From Acidovorax sp. 210-6 (GTDB taxonomy: Bacteria > Pseudomonadota > Gammaproteobacteria > Burkholderiales > Burkholderiaceae_C): a stretch of DNA of 64,000 nucleotides. A program made the translations under genes and the position numbers. Positions 40,111 through 49,068 of this stretch are shown piece after piece. Each line of letters begins with the position of its first letter. Positions within the stretch are counted from its first letter, which is position 1. Under the pieces are notes generated by a model that was not told the origin of the DNA, made no database searches, and was given only the letters and a program-made list of their open reading frames with translations. The stretch is taken from the NCBI RefSeq assembly GCF_010020825.1, contig NZ_JAACJE010000001.1:3472001-3536000 (forward strand). The letters run 5' to 3'.

Positions 40111-40120
40111 AAAAAAGTGT

Positions 40121-40484
40121 GAAGCGCGCCGATAAGCCGGATTCTGTGCACTGCGGTTGCCCGCAGCGTGACCGCCATTACTCTGGGCCGGGGGTCGCCC
40201 ACCCGGCTCGATGCTACCTACCCGCCAGCTCTCCCTGCGGATCCACAAGGTCGAGAGAGGTCGCCCTGCTCCCGTGGCTGGCCTACTTGGTATTGCTGCG
40301 CGTAGAGATTGCCCGTTTCACCCCCAGTGGTCTGCCTTGCGGCACTCCCCCGGGACTCGTCTCTGTTGCTCTGATCCTCACCTCACGGTGGGCAGCCGTT
40401 AGCTGCTACGCTGTCCTGTGCAGTCCGGACGTTCCTCCAGTGCCTGGTTTCCCAGATTGCACCAGCGGCGGTCTGGCGCGCTTC
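40121..40484 (-). ncRNA. rnpB: RNase P RNA, class A
   Basis: Catalytic RNA that matures tRNA 5' ends. On the minus strand it opens with GAAGCGCGCCAGACCGCCGC and closes with GAATCCGGCTTATCGGCGCG; the two ends (GAAGCGCGCC and GGCGCGCTTC) pair as P1. Conserved class A segments are visible: GAGGAACGTCCGGACTGCAC (CR-I), CAGAGCAACAGAGA, GGGGTGAAACGG and GGTAGGTAGCATC. A run of six T follows the 3' end (40111-40116), fitting intrinsic termination. Ends are approximate to a few nt. Confidence 0.96.
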
Positions 40485-41154: not shown

Positions 41155-42768
41155 TCACGCGCCCGCCACTTGCTCCCACGTCAGCCCAAACCGCGCCAGG
41201 TACTTGCGCAGGCGGTCTGCATCGTTGACCACGGAGCGCTGCGTGCGCGAGGCCTGGAACAGCACCCGCCCGGCATCCGACAGGCTGCGCGCACGCCGGC
41301 ACACCCCGGCCACGGCCTGCAGTTGCAGGCGGTCAAACAGGTCCATGGCATCCCACACCGCGTCGCCCACCAAGGCCTGCAGCGCCGCTTCGCCATCGGG
41401 TGCAGTGGCAGCCCCCACGCCCTGCGGTTGCCATAGCCAGCGCAGCCGTGCCACTTCGGCCTGCACCAGCGATTCGCCAATGCGGCCTGCTTCTGCCAGC
41501 GTGGCCAGCCGGGTCACACTGGCGGCCAGGTCGCGAAAGTTGCCGCTCCACAGGGCCTCGGGGCCCGTGGCAAAGCGCAGGTACGCGGCCTTGGCCTCTT
41601 TGGTGAACCGCACCGCGCCGCCCAGCTCGGCGGCCACGCGCATAAGCAGGTAGTCCACATTGGGCTCGATGTCCTCGGGCCGCTGCGCCAGGCCGGGCAG
41701 CACATAGCTCCACAGGTTGATGCGCGCAAACAGGTCTTCGCGGAAGCGCCCGGCCGCCACCTCGGTGCGCAGGTCGCGGTTAGTACCCGCCACCAGCTGA
41801 AAGTCGCTCTCCACCTCACAGTCGCTGCCCATGGGGTAGAAGCGCTTTTCTTCCACGGCCTTGAGCAGCATCGCCTGCTCGTCCAGGCCCAGCTCGCCTA
41901 TTTCGTCGAGGAACAGCACACCCTGGTGCGCCGCACGCAGCAGGCCGGGCCGGTCAGCCGCCGCACCCGTGAAGGCGCCCTTCTTGTGGCCAAACAGGGT
42001 GGATGCCGCTCCGTCACCGCGCAGCGTGGCGCAGTTCACTTCGACGAACTCGCCTGCCACCTGGTGGCGGGCTTTCTTCAGCTCAAACATGCGCCGCGCC
42101 AGATGCGACTTGCCGGCGCCCGTGGGCCCGGTGAACAGGATGGGCGCACGCGAGCGCACGGCCACGCGCTCCACCTCGTCGATCAGTCCGTTGAAGCGCG
42201 CATTGCGCGTGGCAATGCCGCTTTTCAAGAACTGCACCGCATCGCGCTGCTCTGCGCCAAAGCGCTGGGCAATCACGTCGTAGCGCGAGAGATCCAAGTC
42301 GATCAGCGCAATGCTGCCGGGGTTGCCCGCCTGCTGGCGCTTCGGGGGCGAAGTCTGCGCCAGCACGCCCGGAATACGGCGCGACTCCACCAGCAAGAAC
42401 AGGCAGATCTGCGCTACGTGCGTACCCGTGGTGATGTGCGTCCAGTACTCCTCGCGCTCGGTGTCGAAGCGGTAAGCCTGCGTCCAGTCAAAGAGCTGGG
42501 CATACACCTCGCCAAAGTCCCACGGGTCGGCAATGGGCATGGGCACCAGGTTCACCGTGGTCTCGGGCGAGGCAAGAGCCATGTCGGCCTGCACGAGCTG
42601 AGCCAGGTCTTGGTGCGCAAGGGTGTAGAGCAGCTCCAGCCGATCAATCACCACGTCTTCGTGCTGCACCAGCGACACGGTGGGGCGCCACTTCTCCCAC
42701 CGCCCCGCGCCCCGGCCGGAGTCAAGCTGCGTGCCCAGAAAGCCGATCACCACCTTGTTTTTACGCAT
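41155..42768 (-). CDS. rtcR: RtcR, sigma-54-dependent activator of the RNA-repair operon
   Basis: 537 residues from ATG 42768 (MRKNKVVIGFLGTQLDSG); a TTG three codons upstream is less likely. An N-terminal RtcR/CARF-like sensory domain (about 1-180) precedes the AAA+ sigma-54 activator domain with FTGPTGAGKSHLARRM (Walker A), the sigma-54-contacting GAFTGA in GHKKGAFTGAAADRPG, LFLDEIGELGLDEQ (Walker B), and a C-terminal DNA-binding region. In other bacteria the CARF domain senses RNA ends or tRNA fragments and turns on rtcBA. It is transcribed away from the RNA-slipin-rtcB operon it should control. Confidence 0.95.
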   Translation of the reverse strand: MRKNKVVIGFLGTQLDSGRGAGRWEKWRPTVSLVQHEDVVIDRLELLYTLAHQDLAQLVQADMALASPETTVNLVPMPIADPWDFGEVYAQLFDWTQAYRFDTEREEYWTHITTGTHVAQICLFLLVESRRIPGVLAQTSPPKRQQAGNPGSIALIDLDLSRYDVIAQRFGAEQRDAVQFLKSGIATRNARFNGLIDEVERVAVRSRAPILFTGPTGAGKSHLARRMFELKKARHQVAGEFVEVNCATLRGDGAASTLFGHKKGAFTGAAADRPGLLRAAHQGVLFLDEIGELGLDEQAMLLKAVEEKRFYPMGSDCEVESDFQLVAGTNRDLRTEVAAGRFREDLFARINLWSYVLPGLAQRPEDIEPNVDYLLMRVAAELGGAVRFTKEAKAAYLRFATGPEALWSGNFRDLAASVTRLATLAEAGRIGESLVQAEVARLRWLWQPQGVGAATAPDGEAALQALVGDAVWDAMDLFDRLQLQAVAGVCRRARSLSDAGRVLFQASRTQRSVVNDADRLRKYLARFGLTWEQVAGA

Positions 42769-42898: not shown

Positions 42899-42914
42899 TG
42901 GCACGCATCTGGCA
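42899..42914 (+). promoter_or_regulatory. Sigma-54 (-24/-12) promoter of the RNA-slipin-rtcB operon
   Basis: TGGCACGCATCTGGCA matches the consensus TGGCACG-N4-TTGC[AT] with the invariant GG (42900-42901) and GC (42912-42913) exactly 10 nt apart. Transcription should begin near 42925, about 545 nt before the slipin-like start codon. It fits the divergent sigma-54 activator gene rtcR. Confidence 0.85.
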
Positions 42915-43469
42915 ATAGACAAGGCATCCAGCGCAAGCGGTGACCGCTCACAGGCCGGGGTTGGGACAGAAGTCCGCCCCGCCGGTGCCGGAAATCCGGG
43001 ACCTTCGGGCCCTGTCGATGCCCTGCATGCCGCACACCGCAAACACTGGATGACGGCACGGCCGCAGTAGCCACTCCGAAAGGACGTGCCTGGTGCGACT
43101 CCAGGCGTGTCACCACTGGTAGCTCAGTCTGGTAGAGCCCCGCCGAAAGGCGGTTGTCGCAGGTTCGATTCCTGCCCACGGTCGCAAGACCTTGATTGGA
43201 AGTACCGGTCGAAAGACCACCCGCCGAACGCGGGGAGCGGCCCCAGGGTTGCGTTTATCTAGACGCCGCCGCAAGACCCCGCCCCGTCAGCCGGTGGCGG
43301 TTTGTGCCAGCACCGGGCACAGCCCGCGCCCGCAGCCAGCCACGCTGCCGCCCCGCCTGCGGGGCAGCAGACAAGGCGCACTGCAGGGCCCTGGCTGTGC
43401 CCCCTGGCACCCCGCCATCGCTGTAACGGCAACCCGATACGACAACAAAGAAGAGAGAGAGGAAAAGAG
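42915..43469 (+). other. Long structured 5' leader of the slipin-rtcB operon
   Basis: About 545 nt with no convincing gene, dense in stable hairpins. Besides the tRNA-like part annotated separately there are: GGG-A-CC(UUCG)GG-CCC at 42998-43012; TCC(GAAA)GGA near 43075-43084; CCCGC(CGAAC)GCGGG at 43220-43234; and CTGC-cg-CCCCGC-ct-GCGGGG-ca-GCAG at 43345-43370. The 701-nt interval 42769-43469 as a whole therefore holds the rtcR promoter region, the sigma-54 promoter and this leader. Confidence 0.7.
43084..43218 (+). ncRNA. tRNA-like structured RNA, candidate Y RNA (YrlA-like)
   Basis: A 10-bp hairpin (43084-43110, core GCCTGG/CCAGGC) is followed by a tRNA mimic. T120-A121 occupy positions 8-9; the D arm is GCTC(122-125)/GAGC(135-138) with GG in the loop; CCGCC-GAAA-GGCGG (140-153) replaces the anticodon arm and has no anticodon; TTGTC is the variable loop; the T arm is GCAGG-TTCGATT-CCTGC (159-175), all numbered as 43xxx. 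Two GNRA hairpins follow: GGTC-GCAA-GACC (180-191) and GGTC-GAAA-GACC (207-218). A 7-bp acceptor stem does not form and there is no CCA, so it is not a tRNA. YrlA RNAs of rtc operons carry such a tRNA-like module. Ends are approximate. Confidence 0.75.
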
Positions 43470-44612
43470 ATGCTGAAGATGTTTCAACGAGCCGTCGTGA
43501 AGAAAAGCGAACGCGCCCTGCTGCTGCGTAACGGCAGCTTTGATCGCGTGCTGCACAGCGGTACCTACTGGCTCTTTGCGGGCACTGACGAGCTGCGCGT
43601 GGAGACCTTCGCCCTCGAACAACCCGCCTTCACCCACGGCCTGGCCGAGTACCTTATGGCGCAGGAGCCTGCCGTGGTGGCAGCCGAGTTTGTGCAGGTG
43701 AACCTGTCGGAAACCGAAGTGGGCCTGCGCAGCGAAAACGGTGTGCTGGTCGAGATCCTGCCGCCCGGCACCCGCCGCCTGTATTGGAAAGGCCTGGTAG
43801 AGGTGAGCGTACAGGTGGTGGACCTGCAAGCCGGCGCAGAACTGCCCGCCGACCTGGTGGCGCGTTTGACGCAAGCCCAGCTGCGCCAGCGCGCGGTGAC
43901 GGGCCTGACCGGCGTACTGCAGGTGCAGGTGCCCGAAGGCCAGTGCGCGCTACTGACGGTGGACGGCAAGGTGGAGCGCCTGCTGACCGCTGGCACCTAC
44001 GCGTTCTGGAAGTACGGCCGCACCATCGCCGTGGAGCTGGTGGACCTGCGCCTGCAAGCCGTGGAGGTATCGGGCCAGGACATCATGACCCGCGACAAGG
44101 TGGGCCTGCGCCTGAACCTGTGCGCCACCTACCGCTATGCCGATGTGCTGCGCGCCTTTGCCCAGTTGCAAAAGCCTGCCGATCACCTGTACCGCGAGCT
44201 GCAGTTTGCGCTGCGCGCCGCCGTGGGCACCCGCACGCTCGACGAACTGCTGGAGAACAAGACGGTGATCGACGAGGTGGTGACTGCACACATGGCCGCC
44301 AAGCTGTTGCCCTACGGCATGCAGCTGGAAAGCGTGGGCGTGAAGGACATCGTCCTGCCCGGCGAGATGAAAACCATCCTGACCCAGGTGGTGCAAGCCC
44401 AGAAGCAGGCCGAGGCCAACGTGATCCGCCGCCGCGAGGAAACCGCCGCCACGCGCTCGCTGCTCAACACCGCCAAGGTGATGGAGGACAACCCCGTCGC
44501 CCTGCGCATGAAGGAGCTGGAGACGCTGGAACGCGTGGCCGAGCGGATCGACAAGATCTCGGTGTTTGGCGGCCTGGACCAGGTGCTGAATGGGCTGGTG
44601 AAGATGCGCTGA
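43470..44612 (+). CDS. Slipin-like SPFH (band 7) protein of the RNA-repair operon
   Basis: 380 residues; GAGG upstream of ATG 43470. The SPFH domain (VEVSGQDIMTRDKVGLRLNL, ALRAAVGTRTLDELLENKTV, YGMQLESVGVKDIVLPGEMK) is followed by a Glu/Arg-rich coiled coil (KQAEANVIRRREETAATRSL). Unlike typical slipins there is no N-terminal membrane anchor. The N-terminal half instead has three similar units ending in G-T-[YR]-x-x-[WY]: about residues 13-36 (HSGTYWLF), 78-108 (PPGTRRLYW) and 154-183 (TAGTYAFW). SPFH proteins are recurrent neighbours of RtcB; the role, perhaps a scaffold for the RNA or the ligase, is unknown. Confidence 0.88.
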   Translation: MLKMFQRAVVKKSERALLLRNGSFDRVLHSGTYWLFAGTDELRVETFALEQPAFTHGLAEYLMAQEPAVVAAEFVQVNLSETEVGLRSENGVLVEILPPGTRRLYWKGLVEVSVQVVDLQAGAELPADLVARLTQAQLRQRAVTGLTGVLQVQVPEGQCALLTVDGKVERLLTAGTYAFWKYGRTIAVELVDLRLQAVEVSGQDIMTRDKVGLRLNLCATYRYADVLRAFAQLQKPADHLYRELQFALRAAVGTRTLDELLENKTVIDEVVTAHMAAKLLPYGMQLESVGVKDIVLPGEMKTILTQVVQAQKQAEANVIRRREETAATRSLLNTAKVMEDNPVALRMKELETLERVAERIDKISVFGGLDQVLNGLVKMR

Positions 44613-44675: not shown

Positions 44676-45896
44676 ATGAACAACTACGAACAATACGAAG
44701 TCCCGAACGGCGTCCCCGTGAAGATGTGGACCAACGGCGTGCCTGTGGAGGAAGACGCCAAGAACCAGCTGCGCAACATTGCCCGCCTGCCCATCGTCTT
44801 CAAGCATGTGGCGGTGATGCCCGATGTGCACTTGGGGATTGGCGCCACCATCGGCTCGGTGGTGCCCACGCTCAAGGCCATCATCCCCGCCGCAGTGGGC
44901 GTGGACCTGGGGTGCGGAATGATGGCGTGCAAGACCACGCTCACGGCCAGCGACCTGCCTGACAACCTGTCCGGCGTGCGCGCCGCCATCGAGCGCGCCG
45001 TGCCCGTGGGAATGACCCCCAAGCGCTTCGGCCGTGACAAGGGAAGCTGGGATACGCCGCCTGCAGAAACCGACCGCGCCTGGGCCGCGCTGGTGGATGA
45101 GTTCGACGAGATTTGCGAAGCGCACCCGCGCATCAAGAACACGAACAACTACAAGCACCTGGGAACGCTGGGAACGGGGAACCACTTCATCGAAATTTGC
45201 CTGGACGAACACCAGTCCGTGTGGGTGATGCTGCACTCCGGCTCACGCGGGGTGGGGAACGCCATCGGCACCCACTTTATCGAGCTGGCCAAGAAGGACG
45301 CTGAGCTGCACCAGCGCAACCTGCCGGACAAGGACCTGGCGTACTTTGAAGAAGGCGCGCAGTACTTTGGCGATTACGTGAAGGCCGTGGGGTGGGCGCA
45401 GAAATTTGCTGCCGCCAACCGCGAGGTGATGATGGGCCGCGTGATTGCCGCGCTGCGCCAGGTCATCACCAAGCCGTTCGAGACCCACGTGGAAGCCGTG
45501 AACTGCCACCACAACTACGTGCAGCGCGAGACGCACTTCGGGCAAGACGTGTTCGTGACCCGAAAGGGCGCGGTGAGTGCCGAGCAGGGCAAGCTGGGAA
45601 TCATCCCGGGGAGCATGGGGGCCAAGAGCTTCATCGTGCGCGGAAAAGGCAACCCCGAGAGCTTCAACAGCTGCAGCCACGGCGCAGGGCGAACCATGAG
45701 CCGCACCAAGGCCAAGAAACTGTTCACCGTGGAAGACCAGATCAAGGCGACCGAAGGCGTGGAATGCCGAAAGGACGCCGACGTGATCGATGAGATCCCG
45801 ATGGCGTACAAGGACATCGATGCGGTGATGACGGCGCAGGAAGACCTGGTGGAGGTGGTGTACACGCTCAAGCAGGTGGTGTGTGTGAAGGGGTGA
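44676..45896 (+). CDS. rtcB: RtcB, GTP-dependent RNA 3'-phosphate/5'-OH ligase
   Basis: Joins 2',3'-cyclic or 3'-phosphate RNA ends to 5'-OH ends, healing cleaved tRNA and rRNA. 406 residues with every catalytic motif: PDVHLGIGATIGSV, VGVDLGCGMMAC (metal Cys), TLGTGNHFIE, LHSGSRGVGN, NCHHNYVQRE (metal His), VTRKGAVSAE, GSMGAKSF, and SCSHGAGRTMSR containing the His that is guanylylated. Intact, so the ligase should be functional. It follows the slipin gene by 63 nt and precedes the split Abi-like gene by 6 nt. Confidence 0.97.
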   Translation: MNNYEQYEVPNGVPVKMWTNGVPVEEDAKNQLRNIARLPIVFKHVAVMPDVHLGIGATIGSVVPTLKAIIPAAVGVDLGCGMMACKTTLTASDLPDNLSGVRAAIERAVPVGMTPKRFGRDKGSWDTPPAETDRAWAALVDEFDEICEAHPRIKNTNNYKHLGTLGTGNHFIEICLDEHQSVWVMLHSGSRGVGNAIGTHFIELAKKDAELHQRNLPDKDLAYFEEGAQYFGDYVKAVGWAQKFAAANREVMMGRVIAALRQVITKPFETHVEAVNCHHNYVQRETHFGQDVFVTRKGAVSAEQGKLGIIPGSMGAKSFIVRGKGNPESFNSCSHGAGRTMSRTKAKKLFTVEDQIKATEGVECRKDADVIDEIPMAYKDIDAVMTAQEDLVEVVYTLKQVVCVKG

Positions 45897-46233
45897 CCAA
45901 ACATGAACGTCTACAAAGAGCAGGTAGAAACGCTCCAGAACCTGATGGTTGCACGAGCAACCGGCAACGACGAAAACGACGCCGACTATGTGAGGCTACG
46001 ACAGGTCGTTTTGTCGGAGAAGCGATTTGACTCCCTGGTTCCAGGCTTCGTGAGAACCTGCCGAAGCCTGCCTCAGTTTTGGCAATTTATAAAAAGCAAG
46101 TACGCCACGTATGCCGAGCGAAGAGAGTACATATGGAGTGAGTTTCGCCCCCTTTTGGACTTGATTGAATCTGACCAGAACCATGAACCGCCCCGGGTTT
46201 TGAGGAGGCTCCAACACTTGAGAAGATGGAGCT

Positions 46234-46557
46234 ATGAACAAGTCACCGAAGTTCTCCCCGGAAGTGCGCGAGCGCGCCGTGCGCATGGTGCAGGAGCACC
46301 GAGCCGACTACCCGTCGCTGTGGGCAGCGATTGAATCGATTGCCCCCAAGATTGGCTGCGTGCCACAGACCTTGAACGACTGGGTCAAGAAGGCCGAGGT
46401 CGACAGCGGCCAGCGCCCCGGCACCACCACCTCGGATGCGCAGCGCATCAAGGAACTGGAGCGTGAGGTCAAAGAATTGCGCCGGGCCAACGACATCCTG
46501 AAGACGGCCAGCGCGTTTTTCGCGCAGGCGGAGCTCGACCGCCGACTCAAGTCGTGA
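46234..46557 (+). CDS. IS3-family OrfA (HTH protein)
   Basis: 107 residues: a helix-turn-helix ([34 protein letters not shown]) followed by a leucine-zipper segment ([20 protein letters not shown]) and the usual end [13 protein letters not shown]. It binds the IS ends and dimerises. Its 3' end overlaps orfB in the -1 frame; the T-rich stretch at FF (around 46517-46522) is a plausible site for the -1 frameshift that makes the OrfAB transposase. Confidence 0.95.
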
Positions 46558-47468
46558 AGGCCTACATCGACCGCCACCGTGATGACTACGGGGTCGAGCC
46601 CATCTGCCGGGCGCTGCAGATGGCCCCGTCGTGTTACTGGCGCCACGCAGCCCGGCAACGCAACGCGCAACTGCGCAGTGCACGCGCCCAGCGTGACGAG
46701 GGTTTGAAGGCCGACATTCAGCGCGTGTGGCACGCCAACTGGCAGGTCTACGGAGCCGACAAGGTCTGGCTGCAGATGAACCGCGAGGGCATCGTGGTGG
46801 CGCGCTGCACGGTCGAGCGTCTGATGCGTGCCATGGGCTTGCAAGGGGCACGCCGTGGCAGGGCGGTGCGCACCACCACGCCGGATACCTCGGCCCCGTG
46901 CCCGCTGGACCACGTCAACCGGCACTTCCATGCCAGCCGTCCCAACGAGCTATGGGTGTCGGACTTCACCTATGTCTCCACCTGGCAAGGCTGGTTGTAT
47001 GTGGCCTTTGTGGTGGATGTGTACGCTCGGCGCATCGTGGGCTGGCGCGTCAGTCGCAGCATGCAGACGGACTTCGTGCTCGATGCCCTGGAGCAGGCTC
47101 TGTACGAACGCCAGCCAGCGGCCCATGTCTTGACGCACCATTCCGACAGGGGCAGTCAGTACGTCAGCATCCGCTACACCGAACGCTTGGACCAGGCGGG
47201 CATACAACCTTCGGTGGGCAGCAGGGGAGACAGCTATGACAACGCGCTGGCCGAGACCATCAACGGTCTGTACAAGGCCGAGTTGATTCACCGCCGGGGA
47301 CCTTGGAAGACCAGGGAATCCGTGGAACTGGCCACCCTGCAATGGGTGCACTGGTTCAACCACGTCCGACTGCTCACGCCGATTGGGGGCATCCCTCCGG
47401 CAGAAGCTGAGGCAAACTACTGGAGGCAACTCGCCGCCAGCGACACCTCGACAAAGGTGTCAACTTAA
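46554..47468 (+). CDS. IS3-family OrfB (DDE transposase, rve domain)
   Basis: 304 residues from GTG 46554, though OrfAB made by frameshifting is the likely active form. N-terminal HTH_21-like region ([20 protein letters not shown]), then the retroviral-integrase-type core with Asp in [12 protein letters not shown], Asp in [12 protein letters not shown] and Glu in [14 protein letters not shown] (DD35E). C-terminal [20 protein letters not shown] is typical. Confidence 0.95.
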
Positions 47469-48013
47469 ACCAACCGGCCTCCTCGATACCCGGGGCGGTT
47501 CACCATCCCGCTGATTCATTGGTCTCTGGGGCCGTGAAAAAAATGAACTCGGCGTATGCCCAAGCCGTATGGTCAAAAGCCCTTGATCGGAGGGCAGCAG
47601 ATCCAGAGGGTGCAATTACTGTAGCTCGGACACTTCTTGAGTCGGTGTGCAAGCAAATTCTTGATGACTGCAACGTTGCACATGACGACAACCCCGACAT
47701 GAACAAGCTGTATCGACTCACAGCAGAGGAGTTGCGAATAGCTCCGTCCCAACACACCGAACAAGTTTTCAAACAAATATTGGGAGGTTGCACGGCAGTC
47801 GTTGAGGGCCTAGCAGCGCTTCGAAATCGCTTGGGCGATGCCCATGGAAAGGGGAAGGTAGGCGTTCGACCTGCTGCGAGGCATGCAGAACTGGCAGTCA
47901 ATCTCTCAGGCGCGTTAGCCATCTACTTACTTGCTACGCATGAGGCTCGCAAGGATGTACCGACCTAACGTGATCGGTGTCAAACCAACCTTGATGAGAA
48001 CAAAAAATATTGA

Positions 48014-49068
48014 ATGAAGGTGCACTCACTAAACCTCGACGGCTCCACCGGCGAAGGCGGCGGCCAGATTCTGCGCACGGGCCTCGCCCTGTCCATGGTC
48101 ACCGGTCGGCCGCTGCACATCACGCGCATTCGCGCCGGGCGGCCCAAGCCGGGCCTCATGCGCCAGCACCTGGCCTGCGTGCAGGCGGCCGTGGCCGTGT
48201 GCGGTGGGCGGGCTGAGGGGGCGGAGCTGAATTCGCAAACACTGCTGTTCACGCCCGGCGAAGTGCGATCGGGCGACTACCGTTTTCAGATCGCCACCGC
48301 AGGCAGTTGCCTGCTGGTGCTGCAAACCGTGTTGCCCGCGCTGATGCTGGCCGAAGCCCCCAGCAAGGTCGAATTGATGGGCGGCACGCACAACCCGATG
48401 GCGCCGCCGTTTGATTTTCTGGAGCGCGCCTTTGCCCCGTTGGTGCGGCGGCTGGGCGTGGGGCTGGAGCTGGATCTCAAACGCCGTGGCTTCTTTCCTG
48501 CGGGCGGTGGCGAGCTGGTGGCGCACATCGCGCCCGACCCGCAGGCGCTGGCTCCGGTGGATGTGCAGGAGCGCGGACCGCTGCTCAACGCCTGGGGCGA
48601 AGCGCTGGCGCCCGGCCTGGCACGCAGTATCGCGCCGCGTGAACTGGAGACGCTGGGCCAGCGCATGGGCTGGACGTTTGAGGCAGGCCAGCTGCGCCAG
48701 CCACCCACGCGCCAGAACGAAGGTCCAGGCAACGCGCTGCTGGCAACGCTGGAGCATGCCCATGTCACCGAAGTCTTTGCCAGCTGGGCGAACGCAGCCT
48801 GTCGGCCGAGCAAGTGGCCAAGCGCCTGGCGAATGAAATCCGTACCTACCAACGCAGCCACGGCGCGTTGGGCCCGCACCTGGCCGACCAATGGATGCTG
48901 CCCCTTGCGCTGGCCGTGTGGCGCAGTGGCCGGGCCGCCAGCTACACCTGCACCGAGGTCACGCTGCACACAGCCACCAATGCGCAGACCATTGCACTGG
49001 GTTTGCCCCTGCAGGTGCGGATCATCCCGGTGGAACGGGCGATGCGGGTAGAGATTGCCCCAGCGTAG
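48014..49068 (+). pseudogene. rtcA: RtcA, RNA 3'-terminal phosphate cyclase, frameshifted
   Basis: Makes 2',3'-cyclic phosphate RNA ends. From ATG 48014 the frame matches RtcA (DGSTGEGGGQILRTGLALSM, TAGSCLLVLQTVLPALM, GGTHNPMAPPFDFLERAF, RGFFPAGGGEL) to VTEVFAS at about 48784. From there the -1 frame carries the rest: LGERSLSAEQVAKRLANEIR, GALGPHLADQWMLPLALAV, ending at 49068. One base is missing near 48782-48784. In the unshifted frame translation runs on as unrelated sequence to 49051, so the C-terminal quarter with the conserved HLADQ segment is lost. No slippery sequence is seen, so this is a mutation or a sequencing error. Confidence 0.88.

What the first reader, a model, noticed from the sequence alone, without database searches (positions are those of the whole stretch)
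43084..43218. A tRNA-like structured RNA without an anticodon lies in the leader of the slipin-rtcB operon (candidate Y RNA)
D arm, T arm, U8-A9 and variable loop of a tRNA are all recognisable, but the anticodon arm is a 5-bp stem with a GAAA tetraloop and there is no proper acceptor stem or CCA. GCAA- and GAAA-capped GGTC/GACC hairpins flank it. YrlA Y RNAs of some rsr-yrlBA-rtcBA operons carry just such a tRNA-like module, yet no rsr (Ro60) gene is present here; the next gene is an SPFH protein. This may be a Y-like RNA that works without Ro, possibly as a decoy, sensor ligand for RtcR, or substrate/guide for RtcB.
Basis: partly seen in the sequence, partly recalled or inferred. Interest (0 to 1): 0.92.

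Follow-up and report, generated by a model that had tools for sequence, protein, structure and literature searches.

The report
Twin tRNA-like leader RNA before slipin
The stretch is a real, evolutionarily conserved RNA that carries two imitation tRNAs in a row in front of the gene for a ring-forming (SPFH/slipin) protein in an RNA-repair gene cluster; it does not qualify as a Y RNA, and it seems to belong with the slipin gene rather than with the repair enzyme.

Summary
In detail: Rfam's tRNA model scores 35.9 bits (cut-off 29) at 43117-43178 and ARAGORN calls no tRNA there. Homologous leaders show compensatory changes. The element is larger than reported. Two tRNA-like units stand in tandem: TLS1 (acceptor stem, T arm, ACCA end, no D arm) and TLS2 (short acceptor, D arm, tetraloop-capped anticodon-like arm, T arm). 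In Burkholderiales they lie in a conserved, structured leader of about 510 nt, whose 5' end coincides with the start predicted from a sigma-54 site. TLS2 is present in 79 of 80 assessable slipin leaders, with or without RtcR. A D arm and at least two T arms precede slipin in 13 of 14 distant loci; five genomes with such loci have no RtcB. So the RNA tracks slipin. YrlA Y RNA membership fails: 25.5 against 69 bits, unpermuted arms, no Ro60. Most likely it is a tRNA-mimicking RNA partner of the SPFH protein; cis control is the main rival; function is untested. From memory, Burroughs & Aravind (2016) announced a 'novel tRNA-like molecule' for Band-7/SPFH repair systems; the paper was not held.

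The parts
41155..42768 (-). rtcR, sigma-54 activator with RtcR (CARF) domain, divergent
   Evidence: ORF, Pfam RtcR 1.7e-80, NCBIfam RtcR equivalog above its cut-off
42899..42914 (+). sigma-54-type -24/-12 site TGGCACGCATCTGGCA; predicted start about 42925
   Evidence: only match of the pattern in the window, 0.39 expected by chance; a TGGCA-type site in 37 of 42 RtcR-class leaders
42925..43052 (+). 5' structured domain of the leader RNA (closing helix 42925-42931/43046-43052; helices 42957-42961/42976-42980 and 42983-43001/43010-43032)
   Evidence: covariation with controls; closing helix more moderate
43055..43115 (+). TLS1: acceptor 43055-43060/43106-43111, T arm 43089-43105, ACCA 43112-43115; no D arm
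43117..43178 (+). TLS2: UGG/CCA acceptor stub, U8-A9 43120-43121, D arm 43122-43138, GAAA-capped arm 43140-43153, T arm 43159-43175
   Evidence: Rfam tRNA 35.9 bits
43180..43191 (+). GGUC-GCAA-GACC hairpin
43207..43234 (+). conserved GGUC-GNAA-GACC hairpin (43207-43218) and CCCGCCGAACGCGGG (43220-43234)
   Evidence: conserved in both operon classes
43235..43435 (+). 3' structured domain, ends with the conserved GCUGUAACGGCAACCC at 43420-43435
   Evidence: conservation, RNAalifold with compensatory changes (no separate controls)
43470..44612 (+). slipin (SPFH/Band-7 protein)
   Evidence: Pfam Band_7 4.8e-30; model
44676..45896 (+). rtcB RNA ligase
   Evidence: Pfam RtcB 1.1e-129

Best explanation
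The leader codes a conserved tRNA-mimicking RNA that is the partner RNA of the slipin/SPFH protein encoded just behind it. SHOWN by sequence: two tandem tRNA-like units; covariation in TLS1, TLS2 and the 5' domain; position directly 5' of slipin; a sigma-54-type site, next to rtcR, whose predicted start falls at the 5' end of the RNA. INFERRED: tRNA damage activates RtcR (established for Salmonella), so RNA, slipin and RtcB are made together; the RNA folds, possibly trimmed by tRNA-processing enzymes at its acceptor stems; its tRNA-elbow surfaces dock on the slipin ring and on tRNA-handling enzymes, so that it is a scaffold or tether that brings damaged tRNA and RtcB (or other enzymes where RtcB is absent) to slipin. 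This would be the part that Y RNA plays for Ro60, with an unrelated protein and RNA.
For: RNA first: 13 of 13 genomes matched by the 5'-domain model have slipin directly 3'; the 11 best DNA matches of 43080-43220 (L001-L011) all flank slipin. Protein first: TLS2 in 79 of 80 assessable leaders. D arm plus at least two T arms upstream of slipin in 13 of 14 distant loci (slipin about 37-60% identical), against 0 of at most 4000 random 900-nt stretches of the window and 5 of 2065 opposite-strand stretches of the loci. Slipin plus tRNA-like units in 5 genomes without RtcB (of 13 examined): slipin is the constant partner. Covariation. The last conserved block ends about 35 nt before the slipin start and no conserved pairing with the ribosome-binding site was seen. 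Slipin model: SPFH domain with N-terminal beta modules and a long helix, like ring or cage formers. tRNA fragments activate the operon through RtcR in Salmonella (Hughes 2020, passages read).
Against: No expression, processing or binding data. No clear separate terminator (2 terminator-like sites on both strands, 1.2 expected), so the RNA is probably one transcript with slipin and may act only in cis. The large 5' domain was found only within the order (13 of 349 genomes; in the class sample only the window's own genome of 274), so a common scaffold across the phylum is not shown; only the tRNA-like pair is. L095 lacks TLS2 and L084 lacks the T arm of TLS1. RNA binding by slipin was not tested.
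Confidence: 0.45

Rival explanations
1. Cis control: the tRNA-like units gate expression of slipin and rtcB. Elbow-binding or tRNA-processing factors, or RtcB itself, bind or cut the leader according to the state of the cell's tRNAs and so change mRNA stability or translation.
For: Same position and strand directly before slipin wherever looked at; no clear own terminator; kept in RtcR-type and in HNH-preceded operons.
Against: No conserved pairing with the ribosome-binding site and no conserved terminator/antiterminator pair seen; the RNA is large for a switch; the units are kept where the genome has no RtcB.
Confidence: 0.3
2. Bait or decoy for tRNA-cleaving toxins: the anticodon-like loops are cut instead of real tRNAs, or their fragments report damage to RtcR and RtcB.
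For: In RtcR-less leaders the best TLS2 hairpin has a 7-nt loop in 20 of 33, with varied 'anticodons'. Hughes 2020 suggests that YrlA could compete for the anticodon nuclease.
Against: In the window's own class the loop is mostly a 4-nt cap (23 of 40; 7-nt in 6 of 40), which such nucleases should not cut. Salmonella YrlA fragments were not detected.
Confidence: 0.13
3. A Y RNA of the YrlA type.
For: Weak YrlA match, 25.5 bits, E 0.0039 for 671 nt, at 43082-43141; YrlA lies in related rtc operons (Hughes 2020).
Against: Below the 69-bit cut-off; the model gives such weak matches in 110 of 274 genomes and in 6 of 14 controls, E. coli and B. subtilis among them; TLS1's acceptor pairs upstream of its T arm, unlike the order in YrlA; no TROVE gene in the genome.
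Confidence: 0.03
4. Degenerate ordinary tRNA genes without function.
For: Rfam calls TLS2 a tRNA.
Against: Compensatory changes, D stem unchanged in 62 of 62, fixed place before slipin.
Confidence: 0.02

Closest known systems
tRNA-like RNA of SPFH/Band-7 RNA-repair systems (Burroughs & Aravind 2016, NAR 44:8525; abstract recalled from memory, text not held)
   Same: a tRNA-like non-coding RNA said to be the cognate RNA of an SPFH/Band-7 protein in RNA-repair systems
   Different: could not be checked: whether it describes a tandem pair, the D-less first unit, the structured leader of about 510 nt, the tetraloop-capped arm, or occurrence without RtcB
YrlA, bacterial Y RNA (Rfam RF02553) of rsr-yrlBA-rtcBA operons
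   Same: tRNA mimic in an RtcR-controlled RNA-repair operon
   Different: YrlA has T arm, hairpin, D arm in that order and goes with Ro60; here two units in linear tRNA order, score under cut-off, no Ro60 gene
tRNA (Rfam RF00005)
   Same: D arm, T arm, U8-A9, 5-nt variable loop
   Different: acceptor stub in TLS2, tetraloop for anticodon loop in the window, no D arm in TLS1, variable loops and 'anticodons' in relatives
Vault particle (major vault protein with vault RNA; its RNA partner is recalled, from no call)
   Different: stomatin and HflK/C match better; oligomer and RNA content untested

Membership tests
YrlA (RF02553) | score at or above the gathering score of 69 bits | tested here: not met
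   25.5 bits
YrlA (RF02553) | permuted order within one module: T arm, closed hairpin, D arm | tested here: not met
   the 3' acceptor strand behind the T arm pairs upstream: >= 6 contiguous pairs in 61 of 73 leaders, partner swaps mean 21.7, max 33 of 300
YrlA (RF02553) | Ro60/Rsr (TROVE) gene in the genome | tested here: not met
   no TROVE match in G000; control genome Deinobacterium rings
YrlA (RF02553) | binds Ro60 | not testable with these tools
   needs a binding assay
tRNA (RF00005) | score above the gathering score of 29 bits | tested here: met
   35.9 bits at 43117-43178
functional tRNA | 7-bp acceptor with CCA and 7-nt anticodon loop in one unit | tested here: not met
   window TLS2 has UGG/CCA and a GAAA loop; ARAGORN calls none
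SPFH/Band-7-associated tRNA-like RNA (recalled) | tRNA-like RNA next to an SPFH/Band-7 gene of an RNA-repair cluster | tested here: met
SPFH/Band-7-associated tRNA-like RNA (recalled) | same structure as the published molecule | not testable with these tools
   paper not held
vault-like RNP | protein with the vault protein's repeats, shoulder and cap helix | tested here: inconclusive
   partial fold likeness; stomatin and HflK/C rank higher
vault-like RNP | closed cage that holds the RNA | not testable with these tools
   needs purification and microscopy

The most novel reading that the evidence does not exclude
A bacterial vault-like ribonucleoprotein: the slipin forms an SPFH cage akin in architecture to the major vault protein, and the leader RNA with its two tRNA mimics is the cage's resident RNA, which captures tRNA-handling enzymes or broken tRNAs; RtcR and RtcB are an addition of some lineages.
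Probability: 0.13. Interest if true: 0.92.

Novelty: new variant of a known kind. Interest (0 to 1): 0.62.

Why it matters
If the RNA is the partner of an SPFH protein, bacteria have a second way, besides Ro60 with Y RNA, of pairing a ring-forming protein with a tRNA mimic in the response to tRNA damage, and a group of slipins of unknown role gets a testable function. That the tRNA-like pair persists where RtcB is absent shifts the question from what RtcB does with it to what slipin does with it. The loci occur in named isolates (Acidovorax, Delftia, Pseudomonas), so northern blots and pull-downs are straightforward.

Tried and rejected
Y RNA reading: rejected. Ordinary tRNA or pseudogene: rejected. 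The 11-bp hairpin 43083-43093/43101-43111 as an element of its own: relatives support the acceptor reading of its 3' strand. RNAalifold's pairing of the invariant GCUC of the 5' domain with the D arm's GAGC: all positions invariant, no evidence either way, not used. DNA matches of 43080-43220: 91 of 299 genomes, but from the 12th down they cover only part of the tRNA-like stretch at about 80% identity or less and look like ordinary tRNA genes (not checked one by one). First acceptor test: anchor wrong in many rows, L059 and L109 dropped, 65 of 72 with >= 5 pairs against a swap mean of 48.6 (max 57); replaced, which left out 8 of 81 leaders (L051, L066, L070, L077, L082, L095, L103 without the exact D motif, L084 without T1). 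One search kept 60 of 81 leaders (the others lack the exact 5'-domain motif); rest on those 60. Alignment A2 holds 62 of 73, near-duplicates left out by me. L168 (genome G860, found through the RNA model) failed the D-plus-two-T test, and its slipin matches in pieces. Plasmid collection: no match. In one search families not listed are not excluded.

Papers not held: Burroughs & Aravind 2016, Chen 2014, Sim 2020. Searches for SPFH or slipin together with RtcB and tRNA-like RNA listed no paper on such an RNA; this speaks only for the held library and those terms. Other searches: (listings seen). Passages only were read of PMC7790460, PMC6514570, PMC9650030, PMC11090510, PMC7824862, PMC10272220 and PMC7159879; in PMC6514570 and PMC7159879 they held nothing on this RNA.

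Full report
OBSERVATION. The sequence 43117-43178 has U8-A9, a D arm, a CCGCC-GAAA-GGCGG arm, a 5-nt variable loop and a T arm. Rfam's tRNA model scores it 35.9 bits, cut-off 29. ARAGORN reports only a tRNA-Leu elsewhere in the window.

SURROUNDINGS. rtcR lies upstream on the minus strand; slipin, rtcB and, further on, an RtcA-like ORF follow. A sigma-54-type site lies at 42899-42914. It is the only match of its pattern in the window; chance gives 0.39, and 34 of 100 shuffles have at least one, so the better support is that a TGGCA-type site is present in 37 of 42 RtcR-class leaders. The start predicted from it (12 bases behind its GC; a rule recalled, from no call), about 42925, falls where the conserved RNA begins. 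Activation of this kind of operon by tRNA fragments through RtcR is known for Salmonella (Hughes 2020, passages read).

RELATIVES. A scan with the slipin protein found 280 related stretches, of which the best 80 were kept. With the window there are 81 leaders: 42 with rtcR and 39 without a RtcR match in the fetched locus. One (L103) has only 19 nt and cannot be judged. The exact D motif TAGCTCA is in 74. Five more carry D and T arms with a base change or on a truncated contig (L051, L066, L070, L077, L082). So TLS2 is in 79 of 80; L095 lacks it. In the RtcR-less type an HNH-nuclease gene stands within 900 nt before slipin on the same strand in 31 of 39 (two of the misses have too little flank); the gene of L089 matches Pfam HNH. 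These loci were chosen by slipin, so the link to slipin is tested by the RNA-first searches below.

STRUCTURE. At least 6 contiguous acceptor pairs form in 61 of 73 leaders; with partners swapped between leaders the mean is 21.7 and the maximum 33 in 300 swaps. CCA follows in 61 of 73. TLS2's acceptor, counted outward from U8 and the T stem, has >= 3 pairs in 61 of 73 and >= 4 in 32 of 73; for >= 4 swaps give 9.1 on average, maximum 18 in 500. Within classes >= 4 is 10 of 40 against 1.3 (RtcR) and 22 of 33 against 14.2 (others). The T1, D and T2 stems together have 99.3% of cells paired and 69 doubly changed cells against 16.3 in shuffles, covariation 0.278 against 0.120. The D stem never varies and so says nothing, and the number of pairs with a change on both sides is not unusual (91 of 500 shuffles reach it). 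Its closing helix has moderate support: 31 of 60 leaders with 8 of 8 pairs, swaps mean 14.7, maximum 21 in 60 swaps. RNAalifold finds further covarying helices towards 43435, without separate controls.

ANTICODON-LIKE ARM. In the RtcR class the best hairpin has a 4-nt loop in 23 of 40 and a 7-nt loop in 6; in the other class a 7-nt loop in 20 of 33, with many different triplets. A common decoding function is unlikely.

DISTRIBUTION. A model of the 5' domain matches 13 of 349 genomes of the order, the window's own included, and all 13 have slipin directly 3'. In a class sample it matches only the window's own genome (1 of 274; strict filters in both searches). The 11 best DNA matches of 43080-43220 also all flank slipin. 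The tRNA-like pair reaches further. A slipin search in 299 genomes of the phylum found 16 at E <= 1e-30. Of 14 distant loci fetched (13 of those 16, and G860), 13 have a D arm and at least two T arms within 900 nt upstream of slipin; the same test passes in 0 of at most 4000 random stretches of the window and in 5 of 2065 opposite-strand stretches of the 80 loci. In several (L155, L156, L161-L163, L167) TLS1 has a D arm of its own, so the D-less TLS1 of the window may be derived. RtcB is absent from 5 of 13 genomes examined (G1017, G954, G1110, G1126, G1052); in G1154 there is one divergent copy on another contig. No RtcR match lies in the fetched stretch of 9 of the 14 loci; whole genomes were not searched for RtcR. 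Slipin is the constant partner.

MECHANISM. I favour a trans role as the RNA partner of the SPFH protein (0.45). Cis control is the main rival (0.30), toxin bait a third (0.13). None has been tested by experiment.

KNOWN KINDS. YrlA membership fails: 25.5 against 69 bits. The model rings weakly in 110 of 274 genomes and 6 of 14 controls, over its cut-off in 2 of 274; I take these weak matches to be neighbouring tRNAs but did not inspect them one by one. A YrlA over the cut-off shows T arm, hairpin, D arm. No TROVE gene is in the genome. From memory, the abstract of Burroughs & Aravind 2016 speaks of SPFH/Band-7 modules with a cognate 'novel tRNA-like molecule'; the paper was not held, so how much of the above it contains is unknown, and I rate this a new variant of that kind. 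A further hint: in Anabaena a slipin gene and rtcB are both strongly raised when the repressor TrcR is deleted (PMC10272220, passages read).

Noticed in passing
window 45903-47968: An ORF behind rtcB without a Pfam match (45903-46331) and an Abi_C-domain ORF (47519-47968) flank two overlapping ORFs that look like an IS3-type transposase (label recalled) with an ALIL element at 46512-46628; an insertion seems to have split a gene of the rtc operon.
   Followed up: no
window 48014-49068: RtcA homology stops at about residue 219 of ORF 48014-49051, and an RtcA-like C-terminus (by eye) appears in another frame (48814-49068): frameshift or sequencing error.
   Followed up: no
window 43180-43191; L155, L161, L166: Behind TLS2 several relatives have a small hairpin whose loop looks like an anticodon loop (CUGUUAA, CUGAUAA, CUGUAAA); in the window it is a GCAA tetraloop.
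   Followed up: partly
L056-L104, RtcR-less leaders: An HNH-nuclease gene lies before the leader on the same strand in 31 of 39 RtcR-less loci.
   Followed up: partly
L164 (G436): Three tRNA-like units stand before slipin, which is followed by rtcB and rtcA.
   Followed up: no
window 40117-40484: The RNase P RNA gene (minus strand) lies about 2.4 kb upstream of the leader.
   Followed up: no
L031:5171-5911: An extra 246-aa ORF stands between slipin and rtcB; several Acidovorax loci have a gap of similar size there.
   Followed up: no
Rfam RF02553: The YrlA model gives weak matches in many genomes, probably on neighbouring tRNAs; weak YrlA hits need care.
   Followed up: partly
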